From IMG/VR virus record IMGVR_UViG_3300034104_005543, positions 51,487 through 115,486 of that record: 64,000 nt of DNA, one strand, 5' to 3'. This document shows positions 39,082-61,934 of the stretch, in pieces (position 1 is the stretch's first letter; each line of letters opens with the position of its first letter). Origin of the DNA: a virus. The notes under the pieces were generated by a model. That model saw nothing but the letters and a program-made list of their open reading frames with translations, was not told the origin of the DNA and did no database searches. Made by a program: the position numbers and the translations under genes.

Positions 39082-40185
39082 TCACCATATAAAATCTTCG
39101 TCTGTAACAGTAGATGAAGAAGGCGGATTACCAAAGTCATCATCGTCATCAACATTGTTATATACTATTGTCTCTTCCTCTTCCTCTTCTTCTTGTTTTG
39201 ATTCTTCTAAAACAACTTCTTCATCTTCTTCTTCCGCAACAACAGTTTCTTCTACAACAGCATATTCTATTTTACGGGATTCTTGCTCAAAGTTTTCATC
39301 AAAAGTAGTTTCAACTTTTTCAGGTTCTGGAATTGCTACAGGTTCTGGAACAACAGATTCTTCTTCTACTACCATATCTAACTTTTCTTCAATATCATTT
39401 TCTGTTTCTACTACTACCGGAGTAGAAGAACTGACATTATTAAAGTTAAGTGTAGATTCTATAGGTATAATAGAATCAAAACTATCAGTCAAATACTCAT
39501 GCAATTCAGAATGTGCAGACAACCAAAACCTAGGATGGTAGGTATATGTTACCAAAGAAAGCATCTCGTAAACATCAGATAATTTCCAATTAGAAACATC
39601 CTTAAATGTTTCTGTCATCCACTTCTGTATTGTACTTGCCTGGTGTGGTGTAACTAAATTCTTATTAAAGAAGATATTACCTAACAAACAACAAGTTTCT
39701 TCCCTAGAAATTGATTTAAAAGAAAGAGCTTCTATTTCTGCTATTGTGTTGTCATAGTAGGAATAAGCATTTTGTATTACATTTTCCATGAGTTTAATGA
39801 TATCAGAAATATCACCACCCTTTTTTACGGAAAAATAATGTTTAACATATACAGCAGGATTAGTCTTTAACCTACAACCTACCGCACACTTAAAGCGCAT
39901 AGATCTGGTATAAGAATTAACCCAGCTAAATACTAGTTGGTAGGTATCGTTAGACGGTACATCCACCACAAAATAAGCAGCTACTATTTCATTCTTGTTA
40001 GAACCAATAAATTTAATTGATTCTTCACCTTCTGCAGTTGCAATAGTAATGTTATTGTCGGCTAGTATTTTCTTACTAGCCTCAATAACTTGTTTGTGTG
40101 ATGGTGGATTGTATCCGTTACCGTAAACCGGAATAGAACTAGTAATTACAGAGTTCTCGTTTGTGGGATTAAGTTTGATAGGCAT
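39082..40185 (-). CDS. DUF932-like phage protein with acidic tail
   Basis: 367 residues. The middle section, LVFSWVNSYTRSMRFKCAVG followed by CRLKTNPAV, and later SDVYEMLSLVTYTYHPRFW, recall DUF932 phage/plasmid proteins (an N-S then C-R core and a W..(Y/L)...T motif). This is similarity from memory and should be tested. The last 110 residues are an extremely acidic low-complexity tail of Glu, Val, Ser and Asp, ending SSTVTDEDFIW; such tails often mimic DNA or bind basic partners. The gene starts four bases after the polymerase stop and ends at an intrinsic terminator, so it is expressed with the replication genes. Role unknown. Confidence 0.75.
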   Translation of the reverse strand: MPIKLNPTNENSVITSSIPVYGNGYNPPSHKQVIEASKKILADNNITIATAEGEESIKFIGSNKNEIVAAYFVVDVPSNDTYQLVFSWVNSYTRSMRFKCAVGCRLKTNPAVYVKHYFSVKKGGDISDIIKLMENVIQNAYSYYDNTIAEIEALSFKSISREETCCLLGNIFFNKNLVTPHQASTIQKWMTETFKDVSNWKLSDVYEMLSLVTYTYHPRFWLSAHSELHEYLTDSFDSIIPIESTLNFNNVSSSTPVVVETENDIEEKLDMVVEEESVVPEPVAIPEPEKVETTFDENFEQESRKIEYAVVEETVVAEEEDEEVVLEESKQEEEEEEETIVYNNVDDDDDFGNPPSSSTVTDEDFIW

Positions 40186-40189
40186 AATT

Positions 40190-40988
40190 TTAAAATAATG
40201 TGTTTTCTACTTTTTTTACAATGTTACTAATCTCTTCATAAATAGCATCTAGATAAAACTTTTCGTTAATACCATAGTTTACCCAGTCTTGCTCTTCATG
40301 AACATTATATACTGTTTGATATACATTACCAGAATGCTGTTGTATCTTACGTCCATCAACACTGTTGACTTTAATAATCTTACAACCCTTCTTGCTCATA
40401 TAATATCTAGTTACTTTCTGTAAAGGAGATTCTGTAATAGAACCTTGGTCGTTACACAATGCAACTAATTTCCACTCTGAGGATGATTTGATACCACCAC
40501 AGTAGTCAAAAATATTTTTGTTAGCTTTTAATGTTTGCTCTGGTAACTTACCAAAAACAAAATAATTGTATAAAGCCTTACGTTTAATAAGAAAGCTTTT
40601 ATTCTTATGAAGCGCTAAGTCTGTAAACTCAAATGCAATACCCTTACATTTTGTAGGACTGTAATAAAACTTACCGCTCTCTTCTCTACAAGGGAATATA
40701 CCTTTTGATTTAATTTTAGAATACTCTTCAGAAGAACACTCTCTTTCTTTAAAAATACCAATATAGTTATTTACATCTCGAATAATAAGCTCTTTATAAG
40801 CATCAAACTCCAAAGATAAACTAGTTCTTTCTTCCCAGCGCTTACAACATTCTTTATAAATCTCCATTTTATCGCGTGGTATTAAGAATTCCGCACCATC
40901 TGTATTTACCAAAACAGGAATAGCATCAGGAATACTTAGCAATACATCCTCGAACAACATCATCAAAGACAACTGTCCGTTTATAGTA
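40190..40988 (-). CDS. DNA polymerase family B, 3' exon
   Basis: This segment has no start codon of its own. It continues the polymerase after removal of the upstream intron: ...ATGAGCAT joined to TACTATAAACGG reads M-S-I-T-I-N-G-Q-L-S-L. It carries motif C as VLVNTDGAEF, the NTDG variant seen in phage polymerases of this type, plus a Lys-rich thumb region and a C-terminal helix. Spliced, the two exons give 1989 nt, an exact 662-codon frame plus stop. The TTG at 40972 would start a 260-residue protein lacking motifs A and B, which would not be active. The polymerase replicates the phage genome with the primase and DnaB helicase encoded upstream in the operon. Confidence 0.88.
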
Positions 40989-42092
40989 CATTTAATCCCC
41001 TAAATTTCTAAAGGGGGTGGATCATATCTTCTTGATATCTAAAAATTTTATTACTTGCGTGTTTACGTAAACCTTTGCATACTTTTGCAATATAAGATTC
41101 ATCTAACTTATAATAAGCTGCTGCTTCTTTTATTGAATTATATACAAACCCGTCATTCACACATATAACAGGTGAAGAGTGATTATTAATGTAAAAAGGA
41201 AAATCACATCCTTTTTTACATAATATCCATTTTTTTGCTGATTTCCTAATACCCATAATACAACTGTTTATTAATTGTATAGAACATCCTATATGTTCGG
41301 AAGCATGTTTTTGGGTAAGAAAATATTGTATTTCACCTGTTATCAGATTCTTTCCTTTTAGTCTATATTTTATCTTAATTAATTCGTTAAAGTTTTTATT
41401 AAAAGACATAAGCCACTTACTTAAAACAAGTGAGTCATATAAGGCTGATGTTGTTACTTTTAAATACATCGCTGCAGCTTGTACTGAACTAAATTCAATA
41501 ATTTCTGAAGTAAATATATTATACAAATAACATGTTCTTGTATGAGGTTTTGTTGGTAATAGTACATGATTTGTTAAATCATCATACTTTTCAATTAACT
41601 CCTCTTCTTTTAATAAAGCATCTTCTAAATTAGTAAAAGAATCAACTATAGTCATTAATATTTGATTACCGCTTTTTAACTCTTTACTTATCCAATTACT
41701 CTTATAAGTATTATTATGATAAGATTTTGAAGTATGATGTGATAATCTTCTTAAAGGATCTGTAGTAATACCTACATAACGCACTTTATTATTCTTTGTT
41801 GAACAAAGTGTGTAAATGTATATTTTATTTATCATGCACGGTGTTTCCCAGACTATATATTTATTTAAGTCAAGTACTCTCTTGCGAGATGATCTCTGAA
41901 CTCTTCCCTGTTCGGGATTCAGCTGCTGATTGTCCATTTTGTGTAATTTTTTGTAAAAATACAATAAACCTTACACTCATACAAATATTTTTCAGGCATT
42001 CAAGCTTAGTCGTATTTCATACTTACTTTGTAGCATATTTGTCTTTAGGATATTCCAGCAATTAACCGTGTTTATTGAGCACCACTATTTTA
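40989..42092 (-). mobile_element. Group I intron in the DNA polymerase gene
   Basis: The intron is 1104 nt. The 5' exon ends GAGCAU; the intron carries GUGCUC 10 nt inside (42082-42077), giving a six-pair P1 with the diagnostic terminal U-G wobble. Directly before it, AUAGUG (42088-42083) pairs with UACUAU at the start of the 3' exon to form P10. The intron ends in G. Splicing restores the polymerase frame between conserved motifs B and C. A TATAGTCTGG element around 41850 resembles the P7/S sequence of group I introns. The catalytic core lies in the 257 nt before the endonuclease gene. A CCCC...GGGG hairpin (P9-like) overlaps the end of that gene, followed by AUUAAAUG. I could not fold the full core by hand. 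Confidence 0.88.
41008..41835 (-). CDS. GIY-YIG homing endonuclease, intron-encoded
   Basis: 275 residues from MINKIYIYTL. The GIY-YIG domain occupies about residues 4-95: IYIYTLCSTK, then VRYVGITTDPLRRLSHH (the YIG equivalent and catalytic Arg) and a Glu-rich helix (LKEEELIEKY) supplying the metal ligand. Three NUMOD-like DNA-binding repeats follow (FSSVQAAAMYLKVTTSALY; FLTQKHASEHIGCSIQLIN; YNSIKEAAAYYKLDESYIA), each a helix-turn-helix read of the kind seen in phage intron endonucleases. The frame is open 43 codons further upstream, but that stretch encodes ribozyme core rather than protein. It should cut intron-less polymerase genes at the splice junction and so spread the intron. Confidence 0.88.
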   Translation of the reverse strand: MINKIYIYTLCSTKNNKVRYVGITTDPLRRLSHHTSKSYHNNTYKSNWISKELKSGNQILMTIVDSFTNLEDALLKEEELIEKYDDLTNHVLLPTKPHTRTCYLYNIFTSEIIEFSSVQAAAMYLKVTTSALYDSLVLSKWLMSFNKNFNELIKIKYRLKGKNLITGEIQYFLTQKHASEHIGCSIQLINSCIMGIRKSAKKWILCKKGCDFPFYINNHSSPVICVNDGFVYNSIKEAAAYYKLDESYIAKVCKGLRKHASNKIFRYQEDMIHPL

Positions 42093-43282
42093 ATGCTCAT
42101 TGTCATTAGAGGATCGTAGAAAGGACTATTTCTCTCATTAGTAAGACCGTAAGCACTATTCAAAATAATCTTAAATAGATAATTTACAGGATCTTTCTTA
42201 GGTATTTTAACGCGTTCTTTAAAAAACCATTCATACTGTTCACAAAAAATCTCTACCGGAATATGAGCAGGAGACCATTTGTTTTTAATAGCAAGATTAG
42301 GATAAAAACTTATTACATCAAATGATTCAAGAGAGTACTTAGCATCTGACTTGTAAATACCAGGAAGTCTAGAACCATGAACACCACCTAAACCATAATC
42401 AATAGTAATACCTTTAGTCTTTATGCAATGCTTAAAAGCATCTTTAGTTTTTTCAGGATCAATTACTAATTCTTTAAACGCCTCTAGAAGATTCTTAAAC
42501 TCTTCACTTTTGAATTCAGTATAAGGAAGAATAATATCTTTTACTGGAATACTTTCGCGATATGTTCGTAAAGATTTAAAATCTCTAGGATTCATTCGCA
42601 TTTTAGGTGCCAAGTAATAAGAAAATATCTTCTTTGCAATACTAGGTTCAGAAGAACTAAGTAAATCCATTTTATATTTCTCACTAAAGATTTCTCTTTG
42701 AGAAGTCTGCGGTGTAAATATTTTGTATAGATGTTTAGTAGAACTAACATCGTTACCACAGTAACTAATAATCTGATCTATTTGATCAAGACTATTAATT
42801 ACTGTAGAATGATGTATCGGCATTTCTTCAATGTTATGCCAATCTGTTGTAAACTGCAAATATTTTAGACTAGCTCTCTTTGCTGCAGAGTCAAAATGTC
42901 CTTGCTTAAAAACATCAATATGAGGAATACTAAGTTCAAACGGACCATACTCAGCAAACTCTTTATTATTAGAACGCTTTATTGCTTCTTGAGCTTTAAG
43001 GTAAATATTGTATGCTACTTGAGAACCAGGTAGATTAAGTAAGTCTTCTCTATTTCTAATGATGAATTCTATAATCTGAGAATCAAAGGCAATACCATTA
43101 AAAGAAACAAAAGAATCTTTGTTTACAATTAAAGTATCTAGAAAATTACAAAGCTCTTCTAAATCATTCCTTAGATCATGTATAACATAGGTATATACAC
43201 TAGCTTGCTCATCTACATCAGCTTCTTCAAAAACAAAAGCTGTGCAATTAATAAGAGTCTCGCAGTCAAAAACAAATCTCAT
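42093..43282 (-). CDS. DNA polymerase family B, 5' exon (exonuclease, motifs A and B)
   Basis: The 3'-5' exonuclease lies at the N-terminus: ExoI FDCETL (residues 5-10), ExoII SFNGIAFDSQ, ExoIII ISYCGNDVSS. The polymerase domain follows with motif A SFDVISFYPNLAI and motif B KIPKKDPVNYLFKIILNSAYG. These define family B. No terminal protein-binding insertion could be identified. Without splicing, translation runs into the intron after LMTMSI and stops 11 codons later, giving a 406-residue chain lacking motif C. The gene's start overlaps the upstream gene's stop by 4 bases. The exon ends between motifs B and C, in the most conserved part of the gene, as is usual for self-splicing introns. Confidence 0.92.
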
Positions 43283-45668: not shown

Positions 45669-46523
45669 TTAAAATACTTTAGTGACTTCTACTTTTATTG
45701 GTATAGAAAAATATAATTTTGCTAACTCTGCCATTTTATATTGATATACAGGTTGCATATACTTTTCTATTAATTCTTTTGGTAGCATGTTAGATTTATC
45801 ATAACAAGCATAGACATCAAAAAACGAACTTTGTAAATGATTATTTACAAAATTATTTACTTCTTTAGATACATTTTTACTAGTTTTGAAAAAATTAGTT
45901 CCTCTATAATATATAGCAGTACCTAATAAATCTAAAAGAATTTTTTCTTCCTTTGTAGCATCCTTTGTAATAAGTGATAGTAAAATTGTTTGTACTATTT
46001 CTAAATCACTAGGTCCTCCATTACAGATCATAGATATTAAAGTAGGTATCATATCCTCTGTAATTCTAACACTAGGTTTCAGATAATATTTATCAAAAGA
46101 TATTGGGTTTAACTTACCCTCTATAATCAAAGGCAAATATTTTTCCCAGTTTTTAGAAAAGATATAAATGTTTTTATTGAGGTGCTTAACACTTAAAACA
46201 CTAAATTTTGATTTATATTTACCTGTGTAGAATAAACTGACAGGAAAGATTATATGTTTACTATTTTTATACGTATCTATAGGATTCTTCTCTACATTTA
46301 AACCATTACTATCACCCTGAAAATATGGATAAAAGAAAACTTTATCATCAGGTGTAAGAGTTCTGTCATTATTAAAATAGTTGTTATAATCAACTTCATA
46401 CATATAAAAAGCTATGTATTTAGAATTAATAGATATATATTGAAGAGGTGCAGTTTGGAGGAGTTCTAAGAACTCCTCCGTTTTACTGTCACCTTTTTTG
46501 TTATAAAGGCTTTTGGTGATCAT
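45669..46523 (-). CDS. Unknown protein, paralog of downstream neighbour
   Basis: 284 residues, unknown. Tyr- and Asn-rich N-terminal half of likely beta structure (FFYPYFQGD, IYIFSKNWEKYLPLIIEG). The C-terminal helical half contains the segment ISMICNGGPSDLEIVQTILL, which aligns with the downstream gene. It overlaps the MoxR start/stop by one base, so it is translated with that ATPase. No catalytic residues are evident. Confidence 0.75.
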   Translation of the reverse strand: MITKSLYNKKGDSKTEEFLELLQTAPLQYISINSKYIAFYMYEVDYNNYFNNDRTLTPDDKVFFYPYFQGDSNGLNVEKNPIDTYKNSKHIIFPVSLFYTGKYKSKFSVLSVKHLNKNIYIFSKNWEKYLPLIIEGKLNPISFDKYYLKPSVRITEDMIPTLISMICNGGPSDLEIVQTILLSLITKDATKEEKILLDLLGTAIYYRGTNFFKTSKNVSKEVNNFVNNHLQSSFFDVYACYDKSNMLPKELIEKYMQPVYQYKMAELAKLYFSIPIKVEVTKVF

Positions 46524-47725
46524 TAGATTAGAATTTTTTGTGCAACTGCAGGTTTAGTAAGAATATTCAAGAAACGGTTACGATTAGCACCTACTAGTTC
46601 TCTTGCAATAAGATAAACCAAGTCTGCAGGTAGTAACTCATCTTGTTCAATAATATCACCTATTCTCAAAGAAAACTCAGGTTTGAATTCTTTCTTATCA
46701 AATAATACAAGAGTATAATTTATAAGACGGTGTGCAAGAACAGCAGCAATGTCAAGTCTAGTATTAGAACCTTGTCCTACGAGCTCTTTAATTTTGTACT
46801 GAACAAGATTAAAGTCTTGAGTTTCTAAGATGTATTTAGGAGTAACCATCTTATCAAGTTTATCGTGAATAAACTGAGTGAAGGTAGTTACAAACACAGA
46901 ACCTACAGAAATCTCACCTAAAGATTGAATCAATAGTAGAGATGAAGGATCTGAAAAGTCTTTAATAAATCTAATAGAATTAAAGAACTTAGTTACAATA
47001 CGAGCATTGCAATTATCATTAATCATCTCAGGATGTAACAAAACGAAGTTAATACAACGCTCATCAATACCTATAGATTCTGCATACTTAGCCCAGATAT
47101 AAGCATCAAACTTACAATCAACTCTAAAGTAGCGTGAAGTTTGTGCTGTATCTTCGGTAGTAACATTGTAATCACCGTTGTCAGGATTAGAACTAAGAAC
47201 GATAGTAGAACCTTTAGGTAATTTCCAAGAGAAATAACTTTGATTGTCTACAATTTCCATAATAGCTTGCATAAAACGAGGCTGACAACGATTAAAGTCG
47301 TCAAGAATAAGGACCATCTTTTCATTAGAAACTAACCATTCTGGTTTAGCATAACCCATTCTAGTTTTAGTAGTAGCAGTCCAACCTTTATCAGTAGCAG
47401 TTGTCAATACAGCTTCTGGTACCCAGCGAACTTTTGTTTTATCACCTTCGGTTTTAGTTACTTCGTACTCTTTAATAGGAAAACCAGTAATCTCACCTAA
47501 GTCGTCAATCTGAGCAAGATTCTTCTTTACAGAATGAATACCTAGTTTATCACAAGTTTGTTTAATTAATGATGTCTTTCCTATACCGGAAGGACCTGAT
47601 ATGTTAAGAGAAATAGGGTCGATACCAATTTCTTGTAATTTAAGATTGTTTTCAATAATGTACTCTAGAAGTTGCTTTACTTCTGTGATGTTCATCTTTA
47701 CTGTTTTGTCAATTGCTTTTCTCAT
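46523..47725 (-). CDS. MoxR-type AAA+ ATPase
   Basis: 400 residues. Walker A ISGPSGIGKTSL (residues 42-53), Walker B MVLILDDFNRCQP (137-149), sensor-1-like TIVLSSNPDNGDYN and an arginine-rich RYFRVDCKF segment. The order and the DDFNR variant fit MoxR/BchI-class ATPases, which work as hexamers with a vWA partner to remodel target proteins. The partner is encoded directly upstream (4-base overlap), and two paralogous unknowns follow downstream. The target in the phage cycle is unknown; replisome, host protein or virion assembly remodelling are all possible. Confidence 0.88.
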   Translation of the reverse strand: MRKAIDKTVKMNITEVKQLLEYIIENNLKLQEIGIDPISLNISGPSGIGKTSLIKQTCDKLGIHSVKKNLAQIDDLGEITGFPIKEYEVTKTEGDKTKVRWVPEAVLTTATDKGWTATTKTRMGYAKPEWLVSNEKMVLILDDFNRCQPRFMQAIMEIVDNQSYFSWKLPKGSTIVLSSNPDNGDYNVTTEDTAQTSRYFRVDCKFDAYIWAKYAESIGIDERCINFVLLHPEMINDNCNARIVTKFFNSIRFIKDFSDPSSLLLIQSLGEISVGSVFVTTFTQFIHDKLDKMVTPKYILETQDFNLVQYKIKELVGQGSNTRLDIAAVLAHRLINYTLVLFDKKEFKPEFSLRIGDIIEQDELLPADLVYLIARELVGANRNRFLNILTKPAVAQKILI

Positions 47726-48895: not shown

Positions 48896-49387
48896 TTACA
48901 GATTATTTTTACGTGCGTACTCTGCTATTAAAACAGCATCTATTAATCCATCATGTGGTTTAGTAGCTTTATCATAAGTAAGAGAAAGAGTAGGAAAAAG
49001 TCTTTTAATAGTAACAAGAGCCATTGCTTTTGTATCTTTAGAAGTTTTACCTGATTTATTTATAACAGTAGTGTGTTTAAACATTTCTTTTTGCCAATCA
49101 ACAGCTCTTACAGCTGTATAAGGTATGTTCATAGCAACACAAAATGCTTCCACTAATCCCATTTGATACCCCATTGAAAAAGCAGTTTGTTTAGAACTAC
49201 CATATATTACACCTAATTTCTCAAATATAATATGAGTGTGCGAGTAACTTGTCAAAATTGAAAAAAGCGAACCAGTGTCCACTTGATCTTTTATTATAGG
49301 CATCTTAAAAGTGTCAATACTGTCTTCTTTTATAACAGCGATTGCTCCTTTCTTGCCTATATCTATACCAATATAAGTTTTTGTCAT
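48896..49387 (-). CDS. RuvC-like Holliday junction resolvase
   Basis: 163 residues, RNase H fold. TYIGIDIGKKGAIAVI supplies the first Asp (residue 9), HIIFEKLGVIYG the Glu, and PHDGLIDAVLIAEYARK the last acidic residues. The length matches RuvC and phage resolvases. It would resolve four-way junctions and branched DNA before packaging. It sits between primase (4-base overlap) and the vWA gene. Confidence 0.9.
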   Translation of the reverse strand: MTKTYIGIDIGKKGAIAVIKEDSIDTFKMPIIKDQVDTGSLFSILTSYSHTHIIFEKLGVIYGSSKQTAFSMGYQMGLVEAFCVAMNIPYTAVRAVDWQKEMFKHTTVINKSGKTSKDTKAMALVTIKRLFPTLSLTYDKATKPHDGLIDAVLIAEYARKNNL

Positions 49388-50319
49388 ATTAATGATTTTA
49401 TAAGTTCAACAAAATGTTTTTTAGTGTTTTCGTAACCTGTTTTTTCTATTGCTTCGCTAGGGTCTTTGTGTAAAGACCAAGGTATATTCACAAATCCATG
49501 ATCTATATACCTTAAAGCAGCTTTTTGACCAGGTTCATCATTGTCAAAAAGTATAAACTTGCTTTTGTAACTATGTTTAATCACAGCAAGTCTTGTTTTA
49601 TTAAGCATAGTGTTCTCACTATCTACTGCAAGAAAATCAAATTGTCTTGTTATAGTAGAAAGAGACATTATGTCTTTGAGTGATTTAGTAAGAATAAGAT
49701 GTCTTTTATTTTCTATTTGTTCTGCACCCTGAAAAAAATCATTTACATATATAAACTTGCATGTTTTATTATATGGTTGATATATCTTACCTAGAGTACC
49801 GTCTTCTTTAAAATAACCGTAAGTGTATAATCCTTGAAATTTAAAAGTTTTGTCGTCTTTCTGTAGTATGAATTCCGATATAGGTTTAACATTATACTTG
49901 TTAAGTATAGAAAGACCTATATTGAATTTAAGCCAGTATTTTTTATCGTGATCAAACCACTGTCTTGTTTTGTAACTAGTAACTTCAGATGGTGTTTCTT
50001 CTACGTTAGGAACAGAATACTTATATTCTCCTACCTTCATAAAATCAGTAACTATCTTATTAATAGCTTCCTTCTCTGAAATGTTAAATATTTTACTAAC
50101 AAGATGTACAGCACTTCCGCCATTACCAGAAGCAAAATCTTTGTAAATATATCTACCGTAGCGATAGTATATAAACATAGACGGTCTTCTATCAGAAGTC
50201 TGAAATATTGATTTAATTACTTGTCTTTGTCCTTCAAGAGGTTTTTCTAAATTACAATAATATTCAAATATCCAAGATTCTGGGATACTATCTATAGCTA
50301 CATTTAAAAGATTGAGCAT
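49384..50319 (-). CDS. DNA primase, TOPRIM type
   Basis: 311 residues. The C-terminal half has a TOPRIM core: HLILTKSLKDIMSL (Glu replaced by Lys-Ser at the usual catalytic-Glu turn), FDFLAVDSE and KFILFDNDEPGQKAA (the Asp-x-Asp), followed by KDPSEAI. The N-terminal part has YRYGRYIYKDFASGNGGSAV, as in CHC2-type primases, but no zinc-binding cysteines, so the zinc finger is absent. It primes DNA synthesis for the family B polymerase with DnaB upstream. It starts a new group of genes just past an intrinsic terminator. Confidence 0.87.
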   Translation of the reverse strand: MLNLLNVAIDSIPESWIFEYYCNLEKPLEGQRQVIKSIFQTSDRRPSMFIYYRYGRYIYKDFASGNGGSAVHLVSKIFNISEKEAINKIVTDFMKVGEYKYSVPNVEETPSEVTSYKTRQWFDHDKKYWLKFNIGLSILNKYNVKPISEFILQKDDKTFKFQGLYTYGYFKEDGTLGKIYQPYNKTCKFIYVNDFFQGAEQIENKRHLILTKSLKDIMSLSTITRQFDFLAVDSENTMLNKTRLAVIKHSYKSKFILFDNDEPGQKAALRYIDHGFVNIPWSLHKDPSEAIEKTGYENTKKHFVELIKSLI

Positions 50320-61553: not shown

Positions 61554-61934
61554 TTAAGTTTTTAGTCTAGATTCTGATAAACCTAAATCTTTTGCTTCAC
61601 TTGGATTGTTTTCTATGTAATCATGACAGTTACGACAAACGGCTAAGAAAAAGTTAGTATCAATAAGTAAACTACCAATTCTTCCTTTTTTGTGATGAAC
61701 TTCAGTAGAAGAAATACTGCACCCAGGTAAACCTGCTTGACATTTAGTATGCTTTATAAGAAATGCTTTACGAATTAAAGAATAACTTTTTTCAGCTACT
61801 ACCTGCTTTTCAGATTTCTTTGTAATTGTCTTGGGGTTTTTCCTACTCCAACAAGACTTACAATAGAGATCCCCTCTATCATTTTTCCAAATGACAGAGG
61901 GTTTCTCACATGCGCAGCAATCTTTAAGCCTCAT
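61554..61934 (-). CDS. HNH nuclease (NinG/Rap-like)
   Basis: 126 residues. An N-terminal CCACEKP ... YCKSCW zinc ribbon, then the HNH core CQAGLPGCSISSTEVHHKKG and AVCRNCHDYIENNPSEA, ending in LGLSESR. The order and length agree with NinG-type phage recombination endonucleases. It may nick branched DNA or act in recombination alongside the resolvase of the other operon. The zinc and HNH residues are all present by eye. Confidence 0.85.
   Translation of the reverse strand: MRLKDCCACEKPSVIWKNDRGDLYCKSCWSRKNPKTITKKSEKQVVAEKSYSLIRKAFLIKHTKCQAGLPGCSISSTEVHHKKGRIGSLLIDTNFFLAVCRNCHDYIENNPSEAKDLGLSESRLKT

What the first reader, a model, noticed from the sequence alone, without database searches (positions are those of the whole stretch)
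40989..42092. Self-splicing group I intron, with GIY-YIG endonuclease, between polymerase motifs B and C
The polymerase gene is broken into two frames. Joining at the predicted sites gives an exact 662-codon protein with the local sequence MSITINGQLSL. P1 (GAGCAU with GUGCUC, ending in U-G) and P10 (AUAGUG with UACUAU) can be read without any tool, and the intron ends in G. The polymerase is essential, so the phage depends on the ribozyme.
Basis: partly seen in the sequence, partly recalled or inferred. Interest (0 to 1): 0.75.

Follow-up and report, generated by a model that had tools for sequence, protein, structure and literature searches.

The report
Mobile self-splicing intron in phage polymerase
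[quoted passage not shown] such introns in this gene were already reported, but here an intron-free near-twin and repeated independent insertions at the same site make the case for a mobile element unusually clear.

Summary
On the MINUS strand, exons 43282-42093 and 40988-40190 join into a 662-aa family-B-type DNA polymerase; the 1104-nt insert starts with U, ends with G, and lies between motifs B and C. Group I identity holds, though Rfam's model alone misses its threshold because a 275-codon GIY-YIG/NUMOD gene sits in P8 and splits the core. P1, P3-P9, with P7.1-GUA-P7.2, can be assigned (subgroup IA2, no P2). A covariance model built only from this intron and five relatives finds three introns that Rfam accepts on its own. 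A near-identical phage (polymerase 99.4% aa) has the gene uninterrupted. Five phages with polymerases only ~48% identical carry the same intron (86-90% DNA) at the same codon, and carriers do not form one clade (4 changes, AU p=2e-8): repeated homing. P1 shows a compensatory exon/guide change. The first ~220 nt of exon 2, but not exon 1, differ from the empty relative, as co-conversion would leave. Group I introns in PolB of crAss-like phages were reported in 2021, so this is a new member of a known kind. Splicing and cleavage are inferred.

The parts
42093..43282 (-). polB exon 1 (exonuclease region, motif A DVISFYPN, motif B KIILNSAYG); ends ..ATGAGCAT (5' splice site after base 42093)
40190..40988 (-). 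polB exon 2 (motif C VNTDG); starts TACTATAAACGG
40989..42092 (-). group I intron, subgroup IA2-like, 1104 nt, U at 5' end, terminal G at 40989
42077..42098 (-). P1: exon GAGCAU (42098-42093) with internal guide GUGCUC (42082-42077); U.G at the splice site; C-G pair here, G-U in five relatives
42083..42088 (-). P10 5' strand AUAGUG, pairs with exon 2 start UACUAU (40988-40983)
42065..42070 (-). P3 5' strand CACGGU, pairs with ACCGUG at 41842-41837
42055..42060 (-). P4 5' strand UGCUGG, pairs with UCAGCA
41890..41894 (-). P7 5' strand GAUCA, pairs with UGAUC at 41024-41020
41837..41889 (-). P7.1 (UCUC GCAA GAGA), GUA linker, P7.2 (CUUGACU..AGUCUGG), then P3 3' strand: IA2 hallmark
   Evidence: definition in PMC3428280
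41830..41834 (-). P8 5' strand UGAUA, pairs with UAUCA at 41037-41033; the ORF fills the P8 loop
41008..41835 (-). 275-aa GIY-YIG homing endonuclease with NUMOD1 and I-HmuI NUMOD-like repeats; its start codon overlaps the P8 5' strand and its stop UAG lies in the P9 loop, so its last codons also encode P8', J8/7, P7' and the P9 5' strand
40997..41016 (-). P9 hairpin CCCC..GGGG
40769..40988 (-). first ~220 nt of exon 2: 87% identical to the intron-free relative while exon 1 is 100% identical; probable co-conversion tract

Best explanation
This is a mobile group IA2 self-splicing intron in the polB gene of a crAss-like phage. In the transcript, the intron's guide sequence (GUGCUC) pairs with the last six bases of exon 1 to form P1. 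A guanosine bound in P7 attacks the 5' splice site after the U of the U.G pair; exon 1 then attacks after the terminal G, with exon 2 aligned by P10. This restores the frame through polymerase motifs B and C and gives the 662-aa enzyme. The ORF in P8 encodes a GIY-YIG endonuclease that would cut intron-free polB near this site in co-infecting phages; repair from the intron-bearing copy inserts the intron and copies some flanking exon. Anatomy, empty site, repeated acquisition and selection on the ORF are shown by sequence; splicing, cleavage and the direction of conversion are inferred.
For: Exact frame restoration. Near-identical intron-free relative L001 (99.4% aa), and 154 fetched loci (some duplicates) continuous across the site. 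Same intron at the same codon in five other phages: 86-90% DNA identity in the intron against ~48% aa identity in the polymerase and 55-69% DNA identity in the adjoining exon. Carriers are not one clade on the polymerase tree: 4 changes, AU p=2e-8. 66 proposed pairs, 99.7% of cells paired, 3 pairs with compensatory changes (P1, P5a, a P5 extension) against 0 in all slid controls. Model R1, built from these six introns only, finds introns that Rfam accepts on its own: cr118_1 capsid gene (R1 E=2e-22; RF00028 94.7 bits), L084 (2e-15; 84 bits), ICP1 (9e-14; 77.9 bits). GIY-YIG E=3e-10, NUMOD1 E=6e-9; dN/dS 0.22-0.28 between the window's ORF and its relatives. One-sided 220-nt exon-2 tract abutting the intron, 25 of 27 changed codons synonymous.
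Against: RF00028 stays below its gathering score (21.8 vs 50 bits), as expected if the ORF splits the core, but not proof of that reason. Most core pairs (P3, P4, P6, P7, P8, P9) do not vary among the six relatives, so covariation says nothing about them. P10 has no covariation. No RNA data. One relative (L081) has a stop inside the endonuclease. R1 E-values are rough (short calibration, six similar sequences).
Confidence: 0.95

Rival explanations
1. An intein or in-frame insertion removed after translation rather than from RNA.
For: Inteins are common in some crAss-like phages (PMC7886860); the insert length is a multiple of three.
Against: The insert is not open in the polymerase frame: exon 1 reads 9 codons into it and stops. 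Pfam shows no intein domain, and the ribozyme core matches known group I introns.
Confidence: 0.01
2. A degenerate intron: the ribozyme no longer splices, and the polymerase is broken or made as two proteins.
For: No RNA data; low RF00028 score; exon 2 does have an in-frame TTG (40972) as a possible separate start.
Against: Ribozyme segments are the most conserved part of the intron (94-96% against 82-87% for the ORF); the guide changed together with the exon; both exons stay nearly identical in protein to the intact relative, with mostly synonymous changes.
Confidence: 0.04
3. For the flank only: the 220-nt divergent tract in exon 2 is unrelated recombination, not co-conversion during homing.
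For: Two other divergent tracts exist in the same 17 kb (39.1-39.5 and 49.3-50.0 kb); the direction cannot be polarised and no donor with matching exon was found.
Against: The tract edge coincides with the intron edge; random placement of three such tracts puts an edge within 5 nt of it in 0.4% of trials.
Confidence: 0.3

Closest known systems
Group I introns in PolB and other core genes of crAss-like phages (Yutin et al. 2021, PMC7886860)
   Same: Same broad phage group, same gene, group I intron with endonuclease ORF
   Different: That survey identified introns in gut phages mainly by their endonuclease domains; the passages read do not describe this intron, its site, its ribozyme structure or its spread
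Group I introns in phage DNA polymerase genes with HNH nicking enzymes: SPO1 (I-HmuI), SP82, Bastille, Pf-WMP3 (PMC3428280)
   Same: DNA polymerase gene, conserved site of functional importance, IA2 with P7.1-GUA-P7.2 and no P2 (as in Pf-WMP3), mobile
   Different: Aligned there with E. coli Pol I and Taq (family A) and HNH enzymes; here a family-B-type polymerase and a GIY-YIG enzyme, with the ORF in P8 rather than P6a-P7
Group I intron in Vibrio phage ICP1 (HQ641347, L083:2981-3277)
   Same: Closest foreign ribozyme by model score (R1 E=6e-34), 94% identity over 49 nt of P6-P7
   Different: No ORF in P8, different host gene, not annotated as an intron in the record
Group I introns of crAss-like phages cr118_1 (capsid gene) and Rudgehvirus jaberico (helicase gene, with GIY enzyme)
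   Same: Related ribozyme core found by R1; both split a core gene
   Different: Different genes and sites

Membership tests
Group I self-splicing intron (RF00028) | Conserved core P3-P8 with P7, P1 with U.G at the 5' splice site, terminal G | tested here: met
   reciprocal model search hits Rfam-accepted introns
Group I self-splicing intron (RF00028) | Score above Rfam's gathering threshold (a curation cut-off, not a structural feature) | tested here: not met
   21.8 bits vs 50, partial match; the ORF separates the two halves of the core
Group I self-splicing intron (RF00028) | Self-splicing activity | not testable with these tools
   needs RNA
Subgroup IA2 | P7.1 and P7.2 between P7 and P3', linked by GUA | tested here: met
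   UCUCGCAAGAGA-GUA-CUUGACU..AGUCUGG; definition in PMC3428280
GIY-YIG homing endonuclease | GIY-YIG catalytic domain plus DNA-binding NUMOD modules | tested here: met
   PF01541 E=3e-10, PF07453 E=6e-9, PF22083 E=5e-10, all above cut-off
GIY-YIG homing endonuclease | Cleaves the intron-free allele | not testable with these tools
   needs purified enzyme
Mobile (homing) intron | Same site occupied in separate lineages, empty in close relatives | tested here: met
Family B DNA polymerase | Motifs A, B and C | tested here: met
   PHROG 1252 E=4e-125; profile matches PolB of solved structures over motifs A-C, weakly; Pfam DNA_pol_B only below its cut-off
Crassvirales (crAss-like phages) | crAss-type RNA polymerase and relatives | tested here: inconclusive
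   Part of the 3725-aa protein matches Crassvirales RNAP at 23-31% identity, E to 3e-9; 14 records, most labelled crAss-like; structural genes not examined

The most novel reading that the evidence does not exclude
The intron is an element in active spread through crAss-like phages and is used in competition: its endonuclease cuts the polymerase gene of intron-free co-infecting relatives (such as L001) and so favours its carrier, as reported for an intron endonuclease of phage PhiPA3 (PMC11620839).
Probability: 0.2. Interest if true: 0.55.

Novelty: new member of a known kind. Interest (0 to 1): 0.35.

Why it matters
Introns of this gene in these phages were known mainly as something that complicates annotation, found through endonuclease domains. 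Here the exact site, the ribozyme structure, an intron-free near-twin and several independent carriers are in hand, so homing in an uncultured crAss-like lineage becomes directly testable. It also shows why a standard Rfam scan misses such introns: the ORF in P8 splits the core.

Tried and rejected
Rfam at gathering threshold (none in the window) and RF00028 over the whole record (none) miss the intron. A first placement of the P7 3' strand at AUAGUCUG (upstream of the ORF) was rejected: the matching strand is UGAUC after AAGAUAU, downstream of the ORF, which puts the ORF in P8. Early structure strings had offset errors. tblastn of the endonuclease in the named phage collection: no match; scan of prokaryote genomes: none. 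Two-piece polymerase hits in Vibrio 1.084.O, Pseudomonas SYP and Acinetobacter 313 phages are single annotated CDSs, not introns. RF00028 and R1 did not identify the two further inserts in the L170 polymerase. Promoter and terminator scan gave nothing above chance. No donor of the exon-2 tract was found among the loci held.

Full report
What was checked. The intron lies on the minus strand of the window. Removing 42092-40989 (1104 nt) joins 1190 nt and 799 nt into an open frame of 662 codons. The protein matches the phage DNA polymerase family PHROG 1252 (E=4e-125), and its profile matches family B polymerases of known structure over motifs A to C (weak). In an alignment of 20 relatives the invariant K371..N375..G379 (motif B) and N425-T-D-G428 (motif C) flank the insertion point at codon 397, next to the invariant T398-x-N400-G-Q-L. 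Without splicing, exon 1 runs 9 codons into the intron and stops, giving 406 aa without motif C.

Empty site. A phage whose polymerase is 99.4% identical in protein (L001) has the gene in one piece. The DNA alignment breaks exactly at the insertion: 99.2% identical upstream to 42091, resuming at 40988. Of the loci found by either exon, 154 are continuous across the site (some are the same contig fetched twice); the interrupted ones are carriers of this same intron.

Same intron elsewhere. The endonuclease as a query found five further contigs. All carry the whole intron at the same codon, 86-90% identical in DNA, while the polymerases are only ~48% identical in protein and the adjoining exon DNA 55-69%. 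On a tree of 123 polymerases (five of the six carriers; L078 was left out because its gene is broken further) the carriers need four changes of state, and one clade is rejected (AU p=2e-8, quick tree). L079 and L080 share a 99.6% identical intron with exon 2 only 72% identical over 300 nt. This is the pattern of homing into one site.

Ribozyme. Rfam's group I model does not reach its gathering score in the window; at a relaxed threshold it aligns P3-P7 at 42073->41836 with E=0.0058. Read by hand and checked by script, the core is: P1 GAGCAU/GUGCUC, P3 CACGGU/ACCGUG, P4 UGCUGG/UCAGCA, P5 UCC/GGA with P5a ACAAAUAU/AUAUUUGU, P6 and P6a, P7 GAUCA/UGAUC, P7.1 UCUC/GAGA, a GUA linker, P7.2 GACU/AGUC, P8 UGAUA/UAUCA, P9 CCCC/GGGG, terminal G. 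The P7.1-GUA-P7.2 arrangement is the stated mark of subgroup IA2, and P2 is absent as in the Pf-WMP3 polymerase intron (PMC3428280). On six relatives 99.7% of pair cells are standard; three pairs change on both sides (P1, P5a and a P5 extension), none in any slid control. The P1 change is the most telling: exon C with guide G here, exon G with guide U in the five others. With the others' guide, this exon would have a mismatch in the middle of P1.

Reciprocal test. A covariance model (R1) built only from the ORF-less forms of these six introns hits group I introns that Rfam accepts independently: the cr118_1 major capsid gene (R1 E=2e-22; RF00028 94.7 bits), an intron of the L077 phage in L084 (2e-15; 84.2 bits) and ICP1 (9e-14; 77.9 bits). 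Its best foreign hit is a second ICP1 intron (6e-34), which RF00028 scores 38.9 bits, below threshold but E=1e-6. As a negative control, 20 intron-free polymerase loci gave nothing better than E=8.7 in the same search. R1 finds this intron, in two halves, as the only one of its kind in the 115-kb record.

Endonuclease. The ORF (41835-41008) starts at the 5' strand of P8 and stops in the P9 loop, so its last codons also encode P8', J8/7, P7' and the 5' strand of P9. It has GIY-YIG, NUMOD1 and I-HmuI NUMOD-like domains and evolves under purifying selection (dN/dS 0.22-0.28 between the window and its relatives). One relative, L081, has a stop near the end. The ribozyme parts are more conserved (94-96%) than the ORF (82-87%).

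Co-conversion. Against L001, exon 1 and about 1.7 kb in all upstream of the site are 100% identical, but the first 220 nt of exon 2 are 87% identical, with 25 synonymous and 2 other changed codons; the rest of the gene has 8 changed codons. Two other divergent tracts occur within 17 kb; chance placement puts an edge within 5 nt of the intron in 0.4% of trials. Co-conversion during homing is therefore likely, but it is not polarised and no donor was found.

Phage and prior art. A segment of the 3725-aa protein matches the RNA polymerase of Crassvirales at 23-31% identity (E to 3e-9), so the phage is probably a distant crAss-like phage. Group I introns in PolB, capsid, primase and ATPase genes of crAss-like phages were reported by Yutin et al. 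2021 (PMC7886860) and repeated in a 2023 review (PMC10136315). Introns with homing enzymes in phage DNA polymerase genes go back to SPO1 (cited in PMC11878797). The finding is thus a new member of a known kind.

Limits. There are no RNA or enzyme data. Most core helices do not vary among the six close relatives. P10 is present here with six pairs but is not supported by covariation. The tree is a quick one with some long branches meeting, the window pair among them, though the exact 99.4% pairing with an intron-free phage does not depend on it.

Noticed in passing
L170:6651-12128 (contig IMGVR_UViG_3300037488_003165): This relative's polymerase is broken three times (residues ~138, ~376 and 397); the two other gaps hold ORFs that look GIY-YIG-like by eye (KIYIGS..), one of them inside motif B. 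Neither RF00028 nor R1 recognises those two inserts.
   Followed up: partly
L082:1906-2370 (Cellulophaga phage phi14:2): Its polymerase is also split, at about residue 318 just before motif A, with a ~460-nt gap in which R1 gives a weak hit (E=0.07): probably a small intron at another site.
   Followed up: partly
L084:1501-1793 and L085 (same phage as L077): That phage carries further group I introns (RF00028 84 and 72 bits); the first is followed by a sequence resembling the window's ATPase gene (46523-47725), which is uninterrupted here.
   Followed up: partly
2098-2826: Free-standing endonuclease VII/HNH-like gene (PHROG 1035 E=9e-22). DNA identity to the near-twin phage G001 is 99.6% up to 2843 and then breaks, so the nuclease gene sits at a boundary of genetic exchange.
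   Followed up: no
49300-50040 and 39120-39540: Two further tracts of 83-90% identity to G001 inside a block that is otherwise ~99% identical; the first overlaps the primase-like gene.
   Followed up: no
L083:1513-3277 (Vibrio phage ICP1): Around ICP1 ORF81-ORF79 there are up to three group I intron cores (RF00028 77.9, 38.9 and 28.9 bits) that are not annotated in the record.
   Followed up: no
61554-61934: Small HNH-like ORF (PHROG 740 E=1e-5).
   Followed up: no
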